Below, piece after piece: positions 13,089 through 20,272 of a stretch of 25,036 nucleotides of DNA; the stretch's first letter is position 1; each line of letters begins with the position of its first letter. This DNA is from a virus: the IMG/VR virus record IMGVR_UViG_3300008450_000413, positions 1 to 25,036 of that record; one strand, 5' to 3'. The notes below the pieces were generated by a model. It saw nothing but the letters and a program-made list of their open reading frames with translations. It ran no database searches and was not told where the DNA came from. A program made the position numbers and the translations under genes.

Positions 13089-13323
13089 TCCTAATTTCTC
13101 ACCATACGATGCACTTCAAATACTTAATAACAAGACCACACAGTTGGATCTTAATCTAGCCAATTTGATAAAGGCACATAACAGCATGGCCAAATTGGTA
13201 GAAGATCAAGGTCATGCCATTGATGCACTCACCATGGGCTTAAACAATGCCAACAAGGCAAACCAAATATTGATGAGTGACATGATCTCAACAATGACTG
13301 AAAAACTAAAGGATATAAGATAA
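13081..13323 (+). CDS. Small coiled-coil protein, 80 aa
   Basis: The protein is almost entirely helical. It begins [20 protein letters not shown] and has heptad-like hydrophobics through [20 protein letters not shown] and [20 protein letters not shown]. No membrane segment or signal peptide is visible. It starts within the previous gene's end and its TAA overlaps the ATG of the fibre gene (TAATG), so it is translationally linked to the fibre. A small structural or fibre-assembly chaperone role is possible but not shown. Confidence 0.55.
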
Positions 13324-13949
13324 TGGCCAAGCCCGCAATCACATTAAGAAGCACCAAAGGTGCCGCACTGACCTATGCAGAACTAGACACCAATTTTACC
13401 AATGTCAAAGATGCCACTATCACTATCACAGGTGATAGCGGTAGCAAAACACTAGATCTAAATGACACACTCACCGTGGCAGGAGGCGTTGCTTTAACTT
13501 CTAGTGTCGCAGGTTCTACAATAACACTAAATCTAGACAACACCGCAGTCACAGCAGGCTCATATACTTCTGCCAATATCACTGTGGATGCACAAGGGCG
13601 TATTACTGCCGCAGCCAATGGCACAGGTGGAGGTGGCACAATTCAAGCAGGTGATCAATATCAATTTGCCTACTATGATCTAGCAAATGGCAACACCAGG
13701 GTCAACAACAGTCCAGCTCTGTTAACAGATGCCACAGATGGCCTACATCTTGGGGCTGACCTAGATGTAGGAGGCTACAACATTACCAGTGTGAGTGGCA
13801 ATGTGCAATTTGGCAAACAGGTAGTTTTTAAAAATTATACTACCACAGAACAAAATGCACTTACAGGTGTTAGTGGTATGGTTATCTTTAACACCACCAC
13901 CAACAAGTTAAGAGTGTATGCCAGCGGTGCTTGGGTTGATCTCCACTAA
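13323..13949 (+). CDS. Tail fibre-type protein A, 208 aa
   Basis: Residues about 1-100 form a domain shared with the protein at 14570: [20 protein letters not shown], then [12 protein letters not shown] and [20 protein letters not shown] followed by GRITAA. The T-V-D-A-Q-G-R motif is widespread in fibres. A Gly-rich hinge (GTGGGG) leads to a different C-terminus with [17 protein letters not shown] and the cap motif [20 protein letters not shown], a common trimeric fibre ending. The ATG overlaps the upstream stop. The shared N-terminus probably docks to the virion, while the C-terminus varies. Fibre role is inferred from these motifs. Confidence 0.7.
13536..13558 (+). repeat. 23-base direct repeat, copy 1 (other at 14786-14808)
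   Basis: An exact 23-base match to 14786-14808, 1250 bases away, begins GACAACACCGCAGTC. Both lie in the shared N-terminal domain of the two fibre genes and encode DNTAVTAG. It marks a duplicated gene segment and could allow recombination between the fibres. Confidence 0.85.
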
Positions 13950-14066: not shown

Positions 14067-14510
14067 ATGTCCGCAGCCTCAAATTTTTTAGAAGCCAAAC
14101 TACTAGACCACGCATTGAGAGTCACACCTTACAATGCCAGTGCATTCACATCTAGCACAACTTTATATCTTGCATTGTTCACGAACACAAGTGGCAATGC
14201 CGCAACCAACCTAGAAGCAGGCACATTGACTGATGAAATCAGCACTGGTGGTGGCTCACTTTATGCTCGTAGACCCATTGCATTTGATGCTGCCACAGCC
14301 GCAGGTGGAACCACAAGTTCTGCAAGTTCAGCCACAGTGACATTCGCAACTGCTGGTGCAAGTTGGGGATCAATCTCTCACATCGCTGTGATGGATGCTT
14401 CCACTAGTGGTAATGTATTATTCTACGGTGCAGTCACAACTGCAAAAACTATTGACACTGGCGATACTTTCCAAGTATCACAAGGCAACTTAACCGTTGC
14501 TCTAGCCTAA
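14067..14510 (+). CDS. Small virion protein, 147 aa, common tail fibre/Gp80-like type
   Basis: The chain fits a widespread small phage protein: MSAASNFLEAKLLDHALRVT, then TLYLALFTNTSG, GGSLYARRPIAFDAA, ATVTFATAGASWGSISHIAV followed by MDA, and LFYGAVTTAKTIDTGDTF. Such proteins are usually annotated as tail fibre or Gp80-like; the true location in the virion is unclear to me. It has its own late-type promoter box, a strong leader hairpin, AGGAG 7 bases before the ATG, and a strong terminator after it. That layout implies a separate, probably abundant transcript. A decoration or fibre subunit role is inferred. Confidence 0.65.
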   Translation: MSAASNFLEAKLLDHALRVTPYNASAFTSSTTLYLALFTNTSGNAATNLEAGTLTDEISTGGGSLYARRPIAFDAATAAGGTTSSASSATVTFATAGASWGSISHIAVMDASTSGNVLFYGAVTTAKTIDTGDTFQVSQGNLTVALA

Positions 14511-14569: not shown

Positions 14570-15469
14570 ATGGCTAAGCCAGTAATCGTCACAAGAGCAG
14601 GCAAAGGCTCAGCACTCACTTTCGTTGAAGGCGATGCAAACTTTACCAACTTACAAAATGCAACCCTAACCGTTGCAGGCGATGGCGGCACCAGTCAGGC
14701 TATCGACCTAAACGACACCATTACCGTTTCAGGCGGAACTGGTTTAACATCAGCAATGACCACCAAGACTGTGACATTGAACTTGGACAACACCGCAGTC
14801 ACAGCAGGTTCATACACCTATGCTTCATTGACTGTAGATGCACAAGGCCGTTTAACAAGTGCCAGCAATGGAGCAACGCCATTGACAAGTGGTGGTGCCC
14901 TAGGCACACCAAGTTCAGGCACATTGACCAACGCCACTGGATTGCCAATTGGCACAGGTGTATCAGGACTAGGCACAGGGGTGGCCACATTCTTAGGCAC
15001 ACCATCAAGTGCTAACCTTATTTCAGCAATCACAGATGAAACAGGCACAGGCAGTCTAGTATTTGCTACTTCACCAACATTAGTCACTCCAGCATTAGGA
15101 ACACCTAGTTCAGGCAATCTATCAAGTTGCACAGCAGACGGCACTAATAGTGTAGGCTTTAGAAGCATACCAAGTGCTGGATCAGAAAAGACCAGTTCAT
15201 ACACATTGACTACCAGTGATAGAGCAGAATTTGTGCAGGTTGGTTCAGGTGGTTCAATCACTGTTCCTAACTCAACATTTGCCGCAGGCGATGTTGTTGT
15301 TGTTTACAACAATCACACAGCCGCTATCACAATTACCTTGTCTACAACCAATGCTTATATTTCAGGCACTAACACTAACAAGACATCAGTAAGTTTAGCC
15401 ACCCGTGGTGTTTGCAATATTTTATTCATAAGTTCAACAGTGGCAATCCTAACAGGAAGTATAACCTAA
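14570..15469 (+). CDS. Tail fibre-type protein B, 299 aa
   Basis: The N-terminal ~100 residues are paralogous to fibre A: MAKPVIVTRAGKGSALTF, a DLNDTITVSGGTGLTS segment and TVDAQGRLTSA. The middle has repeats typical of phage fibres, TPLTSGGALGTPSSGTLTNA followed by TGLP, then LVTPALGTPSSGNLSS. The C-terminal third (about 210-299) looks like a beta-rich cap with YTLTTSDRAEFVQVGSGGSI and TAAITITLSTTNAYISGT. AAAGGAT precedes the ATG by a few bases, and the upstream terminator separates it from the small virion protein. It overlaps the LamG gene (TAATG). Its C-terminus is unlike that of fibre A, so the pair looks modular. Confidence 0.75.
   Translation: MAKPVIVTRAGKGSALTFVEGDANFTNLQNATLTVAGDGGTSQAIDLNDTITVSGGTGLTSAMTTKTVTLNLDNTAVTAGSYTYASLTVDAQGRLTSASNGATPLTSGGALGTPSSGTLTNATGLPIGTGVSGLGTGVATFLGTPSSANLISAITDETGTGSLVFATSPTLVTPALGTPSSGNLSSCTADGTNSVGFRSIPSAGSEKTSSYTLTTSDRAEFVQVGSGGSITVPNSTFAAGDVVVVYNNHTAAITITLSTTNAYISGTNTNKTSVSLATRGVCNILFISSTVAILTGSIT
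14786..14808 (+). repeat. 23-base direct repeat, copy 2
   Basis: This copy is identical to 13536-13558 and lies in the same position of the shared fibre N-terminal domain. Confidence 0.85.
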
Positions 15470-17529
15470 TGAGTATCCTATGTTCAATGGTTGGTGCTTC
15501 ATTTGTCACTGCGGCTGCTGAAGTCATTCGTGCAAAGAAAGGCATCACTGCTGTAGGCAATGCACAGGTATCTACTGCACAATCAAAATTTGGTGGTTCA
15601 AGTGCCCTATTTGATGGCACTGGTGATTATCTTACCACAAGTAATCTATCAGTAGGCTCAGGTGCATTCACTATAGAATTTTTCATACGCTTTACCACAT
15701 TGCCAGCCGCCCGTTCTGGAGCAGGTTGGCAAATGGCGTGGACAGGTGAAAGTGCTAATAGTTATATACTGATGTGGAGTGATGGTATTCAGTTGGCAGT
15801 GAACAATACTTTTGGTGGTTTTTTGTTTGGTAGCACAATGTCCACTAACACTTGGTATCATATTGCCATAGTTCGTTCCTCAGCTGACTACAAGGTATTT
15901 TTTAATGGCACAGACTGCGGTTCTGCCACAGATGATGGTAGTGGGGCACAATCTTGGGCAAATCGTTCAGGAACTGTTGACTGGACTGGCACTGGAACAC
16001 AATATATTGGAACATATAGTGGTAATACTGCCAAAGGTATTATTGGTTATATAGATGAAGTGCGTATTTCAGATACTGCTCGTTATACCACAACATTCAC
16101 ACCAAGCACCACACCATTTGTCAATGATGCCAACACCCTGCTGTTGATACACGCTGACGGCACAGACGCTTCTACATTCTTTGAAGATGACAACGGTGTC
16201 CGCGGACCTAAGGCCATTAGAAGACTAGGTAATGGAAGTATTTCTACTACACAATCAAAATTTGGTGGTGCTAGTTTAGATCTAACAGGCACTACTAATA
16301 CCACTGCACTAAGAGGTGCTTATGCTAGTGATCTAAGTGTGGGCACAGGTGATTTCACAATAGAAACTTGGGTTAGGTTTACAGGATCAGAAGCCTCAGG
16401 TCAATACAATCAAATCTTTGGACAATGGCAAAATCCTTATGTGAGTTTATTTTATGTTTTAGGAACCATTGGCACTGGCTCCACTCAGAGTATGGTCTTA
16501 CAACTTAATAATGCTGTCACAAGTAATACAGCATCAACAACTGGATTATTCACCACAGGTGTTTGGTATCATATAGCAGTGACTCGTTCAAGCGGAACTA
16601 TAAGATTTTTCAAGGATGGCACACAGGTCACTACCACTTCAAATTCCACTAACACACAAAACCTAACAGGTGTCAGTGATTTTGGTATTGGCTATAATGT
16701 TGATGCAAACACTCAGAAATTGGTTGGCTATCTAGACGACCTGCGTGTAAGCAACTCTGCTCGCTATACTGCCAACTTTACAGCACCCACTGCACCCCAT
16801 GTTAATGATGCCAATACTTTATTGTTGTTGCACATGGATGGAACCAATGGTTCAACAGATTTCCGTGATGATGTGGGTGAAGGCCGTGCCGCTAGAGGCA
16901 TTGTTTCTAGCGGTGCCTCAACATCAACTACACAATCAAAGTTTGGTAGCACAAGTGCTTCATTTAGTGGAACTAACTATCTAGCAGTCTATGGAGACAC
17001 TTCCTCTACCTGGGCACTGTCTGGAGATTTAACTGTTGAGTTTTGGTTCTATCAAACCAGCACTAGCAATGCCACATACATTGATTCAAGAAATGGTGGT
17101 AATAGTTTTGCTCTAAACCTATTACAAGTAAGTCAGAAACTAAGTTGGTATGCAGGCGGTGGTATGCTGATTCAGGAATCAGGCACGATATCAACAAACA
17201 CTTGGACGCATTGTGCATTGGTTAGAAGTGGTAGCACCTTTACATTATACAAAAATGGAACCAGCGTTGGAACCTATAGCAGTAGTAGCACTTTTGCCAG
17301 TCAATTGACTCTGGCTATTGGAACTGCTAACAGTCCAGACTTTGGTGCTAATAGTTCCAGTCATTTCCAAGATGAAATTCGCATCTCAAACTCAGCTCGT
17401 TATACTGCCAACTTTACTCCTGCAACTGCACCATTCCAAAATGATGCAAACACCCTATTGTTGATTCACGCAGATGGCACTAATGCAGCCACAGTATTCA
17501 CAGACGACAACGGCAAGAGACCAGTTTAA
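15469..17529 (+). CDS. Triple LamG/concanavalin A-like lectin-type virion protein
   Basis: The ATG at 15469 overlaps the previous TAA; an in-frame start at 15412 lies inside the upstream gene and is rejected. The 686 residues contain three Laminin G-like (LamG_3) domains at about 20-215, 250-440 and 480-655. Each opens with a QSKFGG/QSKFGS signature, holds a W(Y/T)H(I/C)A core (NTWYHIAIVRSS, GVWYHIAVTRSS, NTWTHCALVRSG) and ends in DE(V/I)RIS or DDLRVS-type strands. Each is followed by a linker of NDANTLLL(I/L)H(A/M)DGT. Such jelly-roll domains bind glycans or other surface ligands. The protein sits in the fibre cluster and is probably a host-recognition module. No signal peptide is visible. 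Confidence 0.8.
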   Translation: MSILCSMVGASFVTAAAEVIRAKKGITAVGNAQVSTAQSKFGGSSALFDGTGDYLTTSNLSVGSGAFTIEFFIRFTTLPAARSGAGWQMAWTGESANSYILMWSDGIQLAVNNTFGGFLFGSTMSTNTWYHIAIVRSSADYKVFFNGTDCGSATDDGSGAQSWANRSGTVDWTGTGTQYIGTYSGNTAKGIIGYIDEVRISDTARYTTTFTPSTTPFVNDANTLLLIHADGTDASTFFEDDNGVRGPKAIRRLGNGSISTTQSKFGGASLDLTGTTNTTALRGAYASDLSVGTGDFTIETWVRFTGSEASGQYNQIFGQWQNPYVSLFYVLGTIGTGSTQSMVLQLNNAVTSNTASTTGLFTTGVWYHIAVTRSSGTIRFFKDGTQVTTTSNSTNTQNLTGVSDFGIGYNVDANTQKLVGYLDDLRVSNSARYTANFTAPTAPHVNDANTLLLLHMDGTNGSTDFRDDVGEGRAARGIVSSGASTSTTQSKFGSTSASFSGTNYLAVYGDTSSTWALSGDLTVEFWFYQTSTSNATYIDSRNGGNSFALNLLQVSQKLSWYAGGGMLIQESGTISTNTWTHCALVRSGSTFTLYKNGTSVGTYSSSSTFASQLTLAIGTANSPDFGANSSSHFQDEIRISNSARYTANFTPATAPFQNDANTLLLIHADGTNAATVFTDDNGKRPV

Positions 17530-17538
17530 GGATTCATA

Positions 17539-19926
17539 ATGGATCAACTCTACTTCTTAGATGGCTACTATGAAGGCAATTACTTTGTGTATACTGCTGA
17601 TGTCATTGTGGGATTTACACCCTACATTGCAGAAGGCTATCTAGATCAAGGCTTCTTTGAAGATAGGGGTGGTGCATTTACCCTAACAGGTAGCCTAACC
17701 AGACAGACATTTCAAGAGTTTGCCGCTGCCTTTACAGGTCAATTTACATTTACAGGTCTAGCGGGTCGTAGTCAGTTTGCCAGTGCCAGTTTAACATCAG
17801 CATTTACTCAGACTGCTACTATAATAAAAACTGCCCGTGTAGAACCTAGTTTGACATCTAGTGTTAGTGTAGCCACTGTGAGTGTGAAAACTGCAAGAAG
17901 TTCTGTAGCACTCACTACCATTGCTGACCTGTCTGCACAGGCAGCAAGAACAAGAGCCTTAACCTCATCAATTGCTGTGGCTGCAACGGTCACAACGATT
18001 GCAACTAAAACCACACAGACAGCAACAGCACTTACATCACAGTCAACATTCACAGCATCAGCACAAAGAACTAGAACAACCGTTCAATCTTTTGTCAGCA
18101 CAGCAACTCAAACCACTGCCACAATAAAAACAGCCCGTATTACACTGGGTTTGACTTCAGCATTTGCGCCTGTGATTACAGCGGTAGCCAGTGTGAGCAA
18201 TGGTGCTGGACTAACTGCAAGTTTCACAGTGAGTGCGTTGACTGGTGTTCTCCGCCAGTTCCCAGTTAATAGTCTAACAGGTGCTGCCACCAGCGTATCA
18301 CCTGGTTATTACCCACAGGTGTTGGATTTTGATCAAACACAATTTCCTAGTCCTGGTGATTTTGCCATTAGAGATCCCAATTGGACATTTGGCGTTTGGA
18401 TCAAGCGAGAGTCAAGAACCAATTACTTTGAAACCATTGCTACTAGCACAGTGGATGTTGGCGGAACCAACAACAAAGCAGCCATTGCCTTTAGAGGCAA
18501 CAACATTCGCTTTAGATTTAACTTTGACCCAGATGAGCCAGGCGCCACTTGGACCAATGTGGCACCCAATGACACTGAATGGCACCACTATCTATTTAGA
18601 AGTATAGTTAACCCTGCCAATGACACTTATCCAGTTCAAAATTGGCTGTTATGGGTTGACGGTGTTCCTCAAGGTGTCACTGATGATGCATTCCAAGCCA
18701 CAGGCGATTTAATTTGGTGTGGACGCTTTGGCAGTCAACAACAAAACACTTTACAAGGTAGTCTAGTTCTAGGCTATCAAGATTTGGCTAGAGATAGTGG
18801 GGGCTATGATTTTAATCCTGCACCCTTTAATGGTGCATTTGCACAGGCTTGGATGGGCCGTGTCACTGATGCACAATTTGATGTCAATAAATTTTATGGC
18901 CGATTTGATCTAGGCACCACAGGCACAGCCACAGGCTTGCCCACACCTATATTTTATAATAGACTGACTACGCCCTACACTGGAGTTGGATGGACCAATG
19001 ACAACACAGTAAAGATAGCAGCCACACAAGCATTGGTCTTGCCCAGTGTTCAAGCAAGATTTACACTGAGTTGTGAAGTAGTCACGGTTATAGAAAACAC
19101 CGTAGCAGTTCAATCAAATGTCTCAGTGTCAGTGTCAGGCACTAGAGTTCTAGTATTAGGTGCCACGCTGGCCGCATCAAGCACACAGTCAACCACAGCA
19201 CAAAAAACAGCCCGTGTGACAGAAACACTGACTTCAACTGCTACACTTAATGCTAGTGCAGACAAACTGAGAGGAGTTAGTGCTGGTTTAACAGCCACAG
19301 CCACACTCTCAGCCACTGCGTTCAAGGTAAAACAATTTGCCTGTGCAATTTCAAGTCAAGTGACATCAAGTGCTACTGCCGCAAGAACTAGAACTGCTGC
19401 CAGTGCTTTAACTGCCGCTGCCACATTCACAGCCGCTATAGATGATAGAACTCGTAATGCCATAACTCTACAAGCAGGTGCCTTTAGTCTAAACATTGTT
19501 TACACTAGAGTGAAATTTGGTGCTGGTGCAATTAGTTCCGCCGCTACTAGCACTACCACTGCTGTCACGGTTAAGAGAACAGCCAGCACCCTATCAAGCC
19601 AATCCACAATCACAACCAATGCACAAAAGGTTGTTATTAGTGTAGGCAACTTGACTGCAAGATTTGCCATAACCAGTATAGTGTTCCGTGCAATAATTGC
19701 ACAGGCCAATTTATCAGCCATTGGCTTTGTGCTTACACAAGGAGATATCTTAAACTTTGATCCTTGTAGAGAAATAAAGGTTGAAGAAGAAACCCGCTTG
19801 GCTAAACTATTGCCAGAGTCAAGACTGCTAATAGTAGATCAAGAAACAAGAACATTGAAAGTTCCACAAGAAACTCGCGTATTGCGTGTGGATTATGAAA
19901 CTAGAGTAAATATAATCAAATGCTAA
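17539..19926 (+). CDS. Repeat-shaft virion protein with central lectin-like domain, 795 aa
   Basis: The N-terminus has Tyr/Gly-rich copies (YFLDGYYEGNYF and YIAEGYLDQGFFEDRGG). About ten imperfect 20-residue repeats fill about 45-255, such as SLTSAFTQTATIIKTARVEP and SLTSSVSVATVSVKTARSSV, and roughly ten more occur at about 500-735, such as GLTATATLSATAFKVKQFAC. Between them, residues about 258-455 look like a concanavalin A-like domain (WTFGVWIKRESRTNYFETIA; NDTEWHHYLFRSI). The last 54 residues are six 9-residue repeats of the ETRxLxVxx type. AAGGA precedes the ATG. A long beta-structured fibre or spike displaying a lectin head is the likely role; no enzymatic motif was seen. Confidence 0.75.
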   Translation: MDQLYFLDGYYEGNYFVYTADVIVGFTPYIAEGYLDQGFFEDRGGAFTLTGSLTRQTFQEFAAAFTGQFTFTGLAGRSQFASASLTSAFTQTATIIKTARVEPSLTSSVSVATVSVKTARSSVALTTIADLSAQAARTRALTSSIAVAATVTTIATKTTQTATALTSQSTFTASAQRTRTTVQSFVSTATQTTATIKTARITLGLTSAFAPVITAVASVSNGAGLTASFTVSALTGVLRQFPVNSLTGAATSVSPGYYPQVLDFDQTQFPSPGDFAIRDPNWTFGVWIKRESRTNYFETIATSTVDVGGTNNKAAIAFRGNNIRFRFNFDPDEPGATWTNVAPNDTEWHHYLFRSIVNPANDTYPVQNWLLWVDGVPQGVTDDAFQATGDLIWCGRFGSQQQNTLQGSLVLGYQDLARDSGGYDFNPAPFNGAFAQAWMGRVTDAQFDVNKFYGRFDLGTTGTATGLPTPIFYNRLTTPYTGVGWTNDNTVKIAATQALVLPSVQARFTLSCEVVTVIENTVAVQSNVSVSVSGTRVLVLGATLAASSTQSTTAQKTARVTETLTSTATLNASADKLRGVSAGLTATATLSATAFKVKQFACAISSQVTSSATAARTRTAASALTAAATFTAAIDDRTRNAITLQAGAFSLNIVYTRVKFGAGAISSAATSTTTAVTVKRTASTLSSQSTITTNAQKVVISVGNLTARFAITSIVFRAIIAQANLSAIGFVLTQGDILNFDPCREIKVEEETRLAKLLPESRLLIVDQETRTLKVPQETRVLRVDYETRVNIIKC
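19762..19923 (+). repeat. Six 9-residue repeats (ETRxLxVxx) at the protein C-terminus
   Basis: Residues 742-795 read as consecutive 9-mers: PCREIKVEE, ETRLAKLLP, ESRLLIVDQ, ETRTLKVPQ, ETRVLRVDY and ETRVNIIKC. Glu, Arg and alternating hydrophobic positions recur exactly every 9 residues, suggesting short beta strands stacked in a prism or helix. The DNA is diverged, so this is an old protein repeat, not a recent duplication. Confidence 0.9.
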
Positions 19927-19936
19927 GGACAAACTC

Positions 19937-20272
19937 ATGAGCACTATAACTGGATACAAATACGACACTGAAGGTGCCTACATTGAAAAGGATCGTCTGG
20001 CCACACTGACTTACACCATAGATTGGACAGATTGGTTGGCAGCAGGTGAACTGATCACTGCTGTGGCCTATTCAATAACAGCACCTACCTACAACCCCAC
20101 ACCCTTGACCATATCAACAAGTGGCATAACTGGTGCATCAAAGATTACCTATGTGAAATTGGCAGCAGGCACCGTCAACAAGGTCTACATTGTGACTGCA
20201 CAGATTACCACAGATTCAGGTGCTATTGATCGTAGAAACTTCAAGGTCAAGGTAGAGAATCGCACACTATAA
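19937..20272 (+). CDS. Putative fibre-tail adaptor/Ig-like virion protein, 111 aa
   Basis: The chain has the pattern KDRLATLTYTIDWTDWLAAG, ELITAVAYSI, then GASKITYVKLAAGTVNKVYI and VTAQITTDSGAIDRRNFKVK. This matches small beta-sandwich proteins often annotated as phage fiber-tail adaptor (D-x-x-D-W-L-x-x-G-D/E-x-I near the start and a V-T-x-x-I-x-T-x-x-G motif later). It follows the big fibre gene by 10 bases and precedes the terminase genes by one base. Role as a connector of fibre to tail is inferred from the family resemblance and position. Confidence 0.6.
   Translation: MSTITGYKYDTEGAYIEKDRLATLTYTIDWTDWLAAGELITAVAYSITAPTYNPTPLTISTSGITGASKITYVKLAAGTVNKVYIVTAQITTDSGAIDRRNFKVKVENRTL

What the first reader, a model, noticed from the sequence alone, without database searches (positions are those of the whole stretch)
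19762..19923. Exact 9-residue ETRxLxVxx repeat at a virion protein C-terminus
Six consecutive 9-mers keep Glu, Arg and alternating hydrophobic positions with no length change. The charge pairing suggests ladder-like stacking between chains, perhaps a trimerisation tip or a docking surface. The DNA is diverged, so selection keeps the pattern.
Basis: partly seen in the sequence, partly recalled or inferred. Interest (0 to 1): 0.6.

Follow-up and report, generated by a model that had tools for sequence, protein, structure and literature searches.

The report
Repeat that anchors phage beaded fibre
The end of this virus protein is a ladder of nine-residue repeats, shared by many bacterial viruses, that most likely ties a string-of-beads fibre to a protein ring on the virus; it is a real feature, but its role still needs a binding test.

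Summary
In detail: P0001 (window 17539-19926, 795 aa) ends in six exact 9-mers (19762-19923). Correction: Arg is kept in 6 of 6 units, Glu in 5 of 6 (unit 1 has Pro). In loci collected by neighbouring genes, not by the motif, 53 of 59 non-redundant relatives keep at least 3 units, and 177 of 193 E.R spacings are exactly 9. In 85 of 85 motif-bearing loci the array sits at the C-terminus.

The setting explains it. The next gene (19937-20272) is Pfam Gp77, the fibre-tail adaptor of podophage GP4. Gene 14067-14510 is Pfam Gp80, the GP4 fibre I protein. P0001 has 20-residue shaft repeats and a lectin-like insert, as expected of a thread carrying Gp80 beads. The 9-mers track the adaptor gene. Gp80-type loci without that adaptor keep the 20-residue shaft but, in several of those read, end in other repeats (10-mers with Trp, 11-mers with Tyr).

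Best reading: the 9-mers are the virion-proximal docking ladder of a beaded fibre, not a trimerisation tip. Docking is inferred: AlphaFold2 gave an extended chain alone and no confident contact with one adaptor copy. The repeat has no Pfam, PHROG or PDB sequence match.

The parts
17539..19926 (+). P0001, 795-aa thread ('rope'-like) protein of a beaded fibre
   Evidence: ORF; 20-residue shaft period; gene context
17701..18288 (+). shaft repeats, part 1 (residues 55-250), period 20/40
   Evidence: autocorrelation peaks at 40 and 20
18301..18948 (+). lectin-like (Laminin_G_3) insert in the shaft, residues 255-470
   Evidence: PF13385 E 1.7e-5, 25.4 bits, just below the curated cut-off of 27.6
19036..19743 (+). 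shaft repeats, part 2 (residues 500-735), period 20
   Evidence: autocorrelation peak at 20
19762..19788 (+).
   Evidence: DPxR cap conserved in relatives
19789..19815 (+). 9-mer unit 2 ETRLAKLLP
19816..19842 (+). 9-mer unit 3 ESRLLIVDQ
19843..19869 (+). 9-mer unit 4 ETRTLKVPQ
19870..19896 (+). 9-mer unit 5 ETRVLRVDY
19897..19923 (+). 9-mer unit 6 ETRVNIIKC, last residues before the stop
19937..20272 (+). fibre-tail adaptor, Gp77 family (Ig-like fold), the proposed docking partner
   Evidence: PF23148 E 2e-18; PDB 8jou_D E 5.3e-10 by profile; the model of a relative matches 8jou_B, TMt 0.86
14067..14510 (+). Gp80-family fibre I bead protein
   Evidence: PF23140 E 1.1e-31; PDB 8jou_a E 3.2e-9
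15412..17529 (+). three-domain Laminin_G_3 protein between bead and thread genes; possible further adhesin of the same appendage (inference)
   Evidence: PF13385 E 5.7e-46, three stretches

Best explanation
P0001 is the thread of a string-of-beads appendage like fibre I of podophage GP4. Its 20-residue shaft repeats carry Gp80-family beads (gene 14067-14510), its lectin-like insert is an adhesin, and its C-terminal 9-mers are a docking ladder: an extended strand in which successive 9-mers are held by successive subunits of the Gp77-family adaptor ring (gene 19937-20272), so that the fibre is fixed to the virion by its C-terminus. The conserved Glu and Arg at a fixed pitch would match a repeated site on the ring. 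Shown: repeat, spacing, selection, bead and adaptor families, gene adjacency, 20-residue shaft period, and association of the 9-mers with the adaptor rather than with the bead. Inferred: that the shaft binds beads, that the 9-mers bind the adaptor, how many units per subunit, and the polarity of the fibre.
For: (1) Bead and adaptor genes are Pfam Gp80 and Gp77 of GP4. PDB entry 8jou is titled 'Fiber I and fiber-tail-adaptor of phage GP4' and holds 10 Gp80 chains and 3 Gp77 chains. (2) In the loci found by adaptor or terminase, 99 of 108 adaptor loci have an upstream ORF of 60 aa or more; of 59 non-redundant ones, 53 have 3 or more in-phase [ED].R units and 57 have 2 or more. (3) Among 53 non-redundant bead-type loci with 5.5 kb or more downstream: adaptor and 9-mer 27, adaptor without strict 9-mer 11, 9-mer without adaptor 2, neither 13; Fisher p = 1.8e-4. 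The two 9-mer-only loci (L175, L223) end just after the thread gene. (4) The shaft period is common to both classes: best lag 20 or 40 in 45 of 55 adaptor-linked threads and in 11 of 12 hand-picked threads from adaptor-less loci, against 28 of 411 control ORFs. So the shaft goes with the bead and the 9-mer with the adaptor. (5) The same array ends thread-like proteins near adaptor genes in podophages (BcepIL02, JC1, CSP3, Itty13) and a Caballeronia genome (taken to be a prophage), in mycobacteriophages (Faith1 gp24 and prophiGD54-2 gp42, 7 units), Rhodococcus phage Jflix2 and Microcystis phages. (6) The podophage-type threads read have three in-register Arg units, matching the 3 adaptor chains per fibre in 8jou. 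(7) The 9-mers modelled alone are extended, not folded, as expected of a strand that needs a partner.
Against: AlphaFold2 of a relative's 9-mers linked to one adaptor copy (L113, read through its stop) folded the adaptor (pLDDT about 90) but left the 9-mers at about 50 with no confident contact. The GP4 thread sequence could not be seen: profiles of the 9-mers and of podophage threads hit no 8jou chain, and the GP4 paper is not held. Adjacency alone could reflect operon structure. The strict motif is missing in 11 of 38 non-redundant bead loci with an adaptor; on reading, several show weaker R-only 9-mers, but that is judgement. Adaptor locus L263 has no thread nearby. One unit per subunit fits the podophages but is unchecked for 4, 6 or 7 units.
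Confidence: 0.6

Rival explanations
1. The 9-mers stack between identical chains (beta-ladder with Glu-Arg pairs) and oligomerise the fibre, at tip or base; they do not bind the adaptor.
For: The strand pattern with alternating hydrophobic residues and a charged pair at fixed pitch suits beta-stacking; a single chain does not fold in AlphaFold2, as for obligate oligomers.
Against: The array tracks the adaptor gene, not just the presence of a thread; units change between relatives by 18 residues in the rows shown, and 3 to 7 units occur.
Confidence: 0.2
2. The 9-mers bind Gp80 beads, as a special end of the bead-binding shaft.
For: The bead gene is present in the module; shaft and 9-mers are contiguous.
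Against: Bead-type loci without the Gp77-type adaptor keep the 20-residue shaft but not the 9-mers.
Confidence: 0.12
3. The 9-mers are an assembly signal or chaperone-binding tail with no place in the mature virion.
For: Extreme C-terminal location; many relatives carry a further conserved tail of about 15 residues ending D(R/T)R(E/K)(G).
Against: The window clade ends exactly at the last unit; no chaperone gene was identified next to it.
Confidence: 0.08

Closest known systems
GP4 fibre I module (Gp80 beads, 'rope' protein, Gp77 fibre-tail adaptor; PDB 8jou)
   Same: Bead and adaptor families present in the window (Pfam PF23140, PF23148); the thread-like gene lies between them.
   Different: The window's other genes (central tail fibre J-like protein, tape-measure-sized ORF) suggest a long-tailed phage, not a podophage; its thread is far longer than podophage ones, has a lectin-like insert and six 9-mers instead of three. 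Whether GP4's own rope has 9-mers was not seen; the rope itself is recalled from the GP4 abstract.
Alishewanella phage LSH1 gp34-36 module (PMC13243795; sections 16 and 25 read)
   Same: Three-gene virion module: a payload protein with a poorly modelled C-terminal region, a protein matching 8JOU_g, and an Ig-fold protein.
   Different: The authors had no explanation for the poorly modelled region and no complex; the LSH1 sequence is not in the collections, so 9-mers there were not tested.
Phage DSL-LC06 (OR003941) WKW35119
   Same: Ungapped 106-residue match over the C-terminus, 30% identity, same 9-mer register; order bead - thread - adaptor - terminase.
   Different: Annotated only as a hypothetical protein; shorter (448 aa), and with a further C-terminal tail.
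A-1(L) myophage bead-chain neck fibres (PMC10966104; abstract and passages read)
   Same: Five bead-chain fibres on a 15-fold ring.
   Different: Beads are trimers joined head to tail (gp80-82 of that phage), not strung on a thread; I take the shared number 'gp80' to be a coincidence of numbering (not tested).

Membership tests
GP4-type fibre I appendage | Gp80 bead protein encoded | tested here: met
   PF23140 E 1.1e-31; 8jou_a E 3.2e-9
GP4-type fibre I appendage | Gp77 fibre-tail adaptor encoded | tested here: met
   PF23148 E 2e-18, 67.1 bits against cut-off 27; 8jou_D E 5.3e-10
GP4-type fibre I appendage | elongated rope protein linking Gp80 dimers (recalled from the GP4 abstract) | tested here: inconclusive
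   P0001 has the 20/40-residue period and gene position, but no rope sequence of GP4 was found to compare
GP4-type fibre I appendage | 15-fold adaptor ring with five fibres (recalled) | not testable with these tools
   needs a virion structure
RTX nonapeptide beta-roll | GGxGxDxUx repeats binding calcium (recalled) | tested here: not met
   no Gly or Asp at those positions; consensus is E-[TS]-R-x-[LNFIY]-x-[VI]-x-x
Trimeric fibre C-terminal trimerisation domain | compact C-terminal fold | tested here: inconclusive
Any described repeat family | match in Pfam or PHROGs | tested here: not met
   41 C-terminal segments scanned; only single-member hits (best E 0.0041 Pfam, 0.0059 PHROGs), judged chance

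The most novel reading that the evidence does not exclude
Beaded phage fibres use two pitch codes on one thread: 20-residue repeats that each take one bead subunit, and C-terminal repeats of lineage-specific length (9 with Arg, 10 with Trp, 11 with Tyr) that each take one subunit of the matching adaptor ring, so that the number of C-terminal units sets how many ring subunits one fibre occupies (3 in GP4-like podophages, 4 or 6 in the window's relatives, 7 in mycobacteriophages).
Probability: 0.3. Interest if true: 0.78.

Novelty: new variant of a known kind. Interest (0 to 1): 0.6.

Why it matters
It would explain how string-of-beads fibres are fixed to phage virions and in which direction they point (C-terminus in, opposite to the usual fibre). 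It gives a sequence signature for a hardly annotated appendage found in podophages, siphophages and probably myophages, and it offers a reason for the 'badly predicted' C-terminal region that puzzled the LSH1 authors. It also makes a testable numerical claim: repeat number against ring stoichiometry.

Tried and rejected
Tandem duplication at DNA level: no array found and units are on average 43% identical, so the repeat is old. The Mycobacterium cluster-E 'minor tail' hits (E 0.8-2) were read in Bask21: no array in the part printed; judged chance. An R-only chain of 4 or more as detector was too noisy in GC-rich DNA (281 ORFs of 13374, 154 in shuffles), so the [ED].R rule was used for counts. 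Podophage threads against PDB gave only chance hits. The idea that units always come in even numbers was dropped: 37 of 59 have six and 8 of 59 have four units (cap counted), but 3, 5 and 7 occur. Looking for the docking in a linked model failed.

Paper searches for the repeat itself: (nine-residue repeat terms) gave one paper, unrelated by its title and abstract; the listings showed no description of it. Subscription papers are not held, so this does not show that it is unpublished; the GP4 paper in particular may describe the thread's end.

Full report
Observation. P0001 (17539-19926) ends in six 9-mers with no length change. Arg is kept in all six, Glu in five; unit 1 is a cap (preceded by Asp: D-P-C-R). 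The DNA is diverged (mean 43% identity), shuffles never reach the observed run, and the last 55 codons are under stronger purifying selection than the 250 residues before (dN/dS 0.14-0.27 against 0.30-0.51, seven relatives).

Relatives. A tblastn of the protein in the phage collection gave one record, DSL-LC06, whose protein aligns without gaps over 106 residues in the same 9-mer register. To avoid choosing relatives by the motif, I collected viral loci with the downstream gene (A3, 80 of 86 kept) and with the terminase (A2, 80 of 518 kept). Of 158 loci then held, 85 have an ORF with three or more consecutive E.R at spacing 9, all within 18 residues of the C-terminus (some contigs appear twice, and L003 is the window itself). 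Of 108 loci with an adaptor gene, 99 had an upstream ORF of 60 aa or more; 59 remained after removing those 90% or more identical over the last 75 residues. Among these, 177 of 193 successive E.R spacings are exactly 9 (four more are 18), and the commonest form is a cap plus five units (37 of 59) or a cap plus three (8 of 59). Loss is seen too: L090 and L093 keep one strict unit, L018 and L261 have lost some Glu or Arg, and L026 (with its copies L027-L029) has broken spacing. The 4-unit rows shown lack exactly 18 columns.

Setting. The next gene is Pfam Gp77, 'Podophage GP4 fiber-tail adaptor protein gp77', and matches PDB 8jou. Gene 14067-14510 is Pfam Gp80, 'Podophage GP4 fiber I protein gp80', and matches the other chain found in 8jou. 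8jou holds 10 Gp80 and 3 Gp77 chains. From memory (the paper is not held), GP4 fibre I is five Gp80 dimers linked by an elongated rope protein, with five such fibres on a 15-fold adaptor. The DEV preprint (passages) likens its own 15:12 collar mismatch to that of GP4. The LSH1 paper (sections 16 and 25) describes a similar three-gene module with an unexplained, badly modelled C-terminal region in its payload protein.

Thread architecture. The P0001 shaft has a 20-residue period on both sides of a lectin-like insert. In 55 adaptor-linked threads long enough to test, the best lag is 20 or 40 in 45, against 28 of 411 control ORFs.

What the 9-mer tracks. A further scan with the bead protein (A10; 80 of 313 kept) gave loci chosen without regard to thread or adaptor. 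With strict rules, in 53 non-redundant bead loci with enough downstream sequence (drawn from all loci held, so including those fetched by adaptor or terminase, which favours adaptor-positive rows), adaptor and 9-mer go together (27 both, 13 neither, 11 adaptor only, 2 nine-mer only; Fisher p = 1.8e-4). The two 9-mer-only loci are cut just after the thread. Of the eleven adaptor-only loci, L159, L164, L165, L167, L179 and L196 show weaker or shorter 9-mers on reading. Adaptor-less bead loci keep the 20-residue shaft (11 of 12 that I picked); several end in a different periodic array: 10-mers with Trp (L214, L244, L251), 11-mers with Tyr (L220). Others in the 'neither' class (for example L204, L210, L216, L241) have quite different downstream genes and say little. 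This separates the two repeats: shaft with bead, C-terminal array with adaptor.

Breadth. Arrays of the same pitch end thread-like proteins near adaptor genes in Burkholderia and Pseudomonas podophages and a Caballeronia genome (three units), Faith1 and prophiGD54-2 (seven units), Jflix2, and Microcystis phages. In Faith1 and prophiGD54-2 the order is adaptor - bead - thread, so adjacency of thread and adaptor is not obligatory. Three units in podophage types equal the three adaptor chains per fibre in 8jou; this is the main hint for one unit per subunit.

Structure prediction. The 75-residue C-terminus with 40 aligned rows gave mean pLDDT 70.9, pTM 0.17 and no secondary structure, which I read as an extended chain. 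A linked chain of a relative (L113) folded the adaptor well and left the 9-mers undocked. So docking has no support from modelling; a single linked copy is a weak test.

Verdict. The finding is real and part of a known kind of appendage, but the repeat itself matched nothing convincing in Pfam, PHROGs or PDB sequences. The best reading is a C-terminal docking ladder for the adaptor ring; self-stacking is the main rival.

Noticed in passing
L214, L244, L251, L220 (ORF after the bead gene): Bead-type loci without Gp77-type adaptor have threads ending in other periodic arrays: 10-mers with Trp (..NTWTDV..) or 11-mers with Tyr (ETYT.L.SS..).
   Followed up: partly
window 19765-19767 and 19921-19923: The window clade (9 of 59 non-redundant sequences) has Cys in unit 1 (DPCR) and Cys as the last residue; on reading, no other has Cys at either place. 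A disulphide closing or cross-linking the array is possible.
   Followed up: no
L227:9959-10647: Two adaptor-family genes in tandem downstream of a six-unit thread.
   Followed up: no
L164:4363-4983 (Agrobacterium phage Atu_ph08): An unannotated ORF with 9-mers at its end lies just before the adaptor; the record annotates a gene on the other strand there.
   Followed up: partly
window 13323-13949 and 14570-15469: Two proteins share an N-terminus (MAKP.I..R..KG.ALT..E.D.NFTN) that resembles the start of a DSL-LC06 protein (L001:9053-9892): a possible shared attachment motif of other fibre parts.
   Followed up: no
many relatives, after the last 9-mer: A further conserved tail of about 15 residues ending D(R/T)R(E/K)(G) follows the array in many relatives and is absent in the window clade.
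   Followed up: no
P0001 N-terminus, 17539-17680: Tyr-rich N-terminal motif shared loosely with relatives; function unknown.
   Followed up: no
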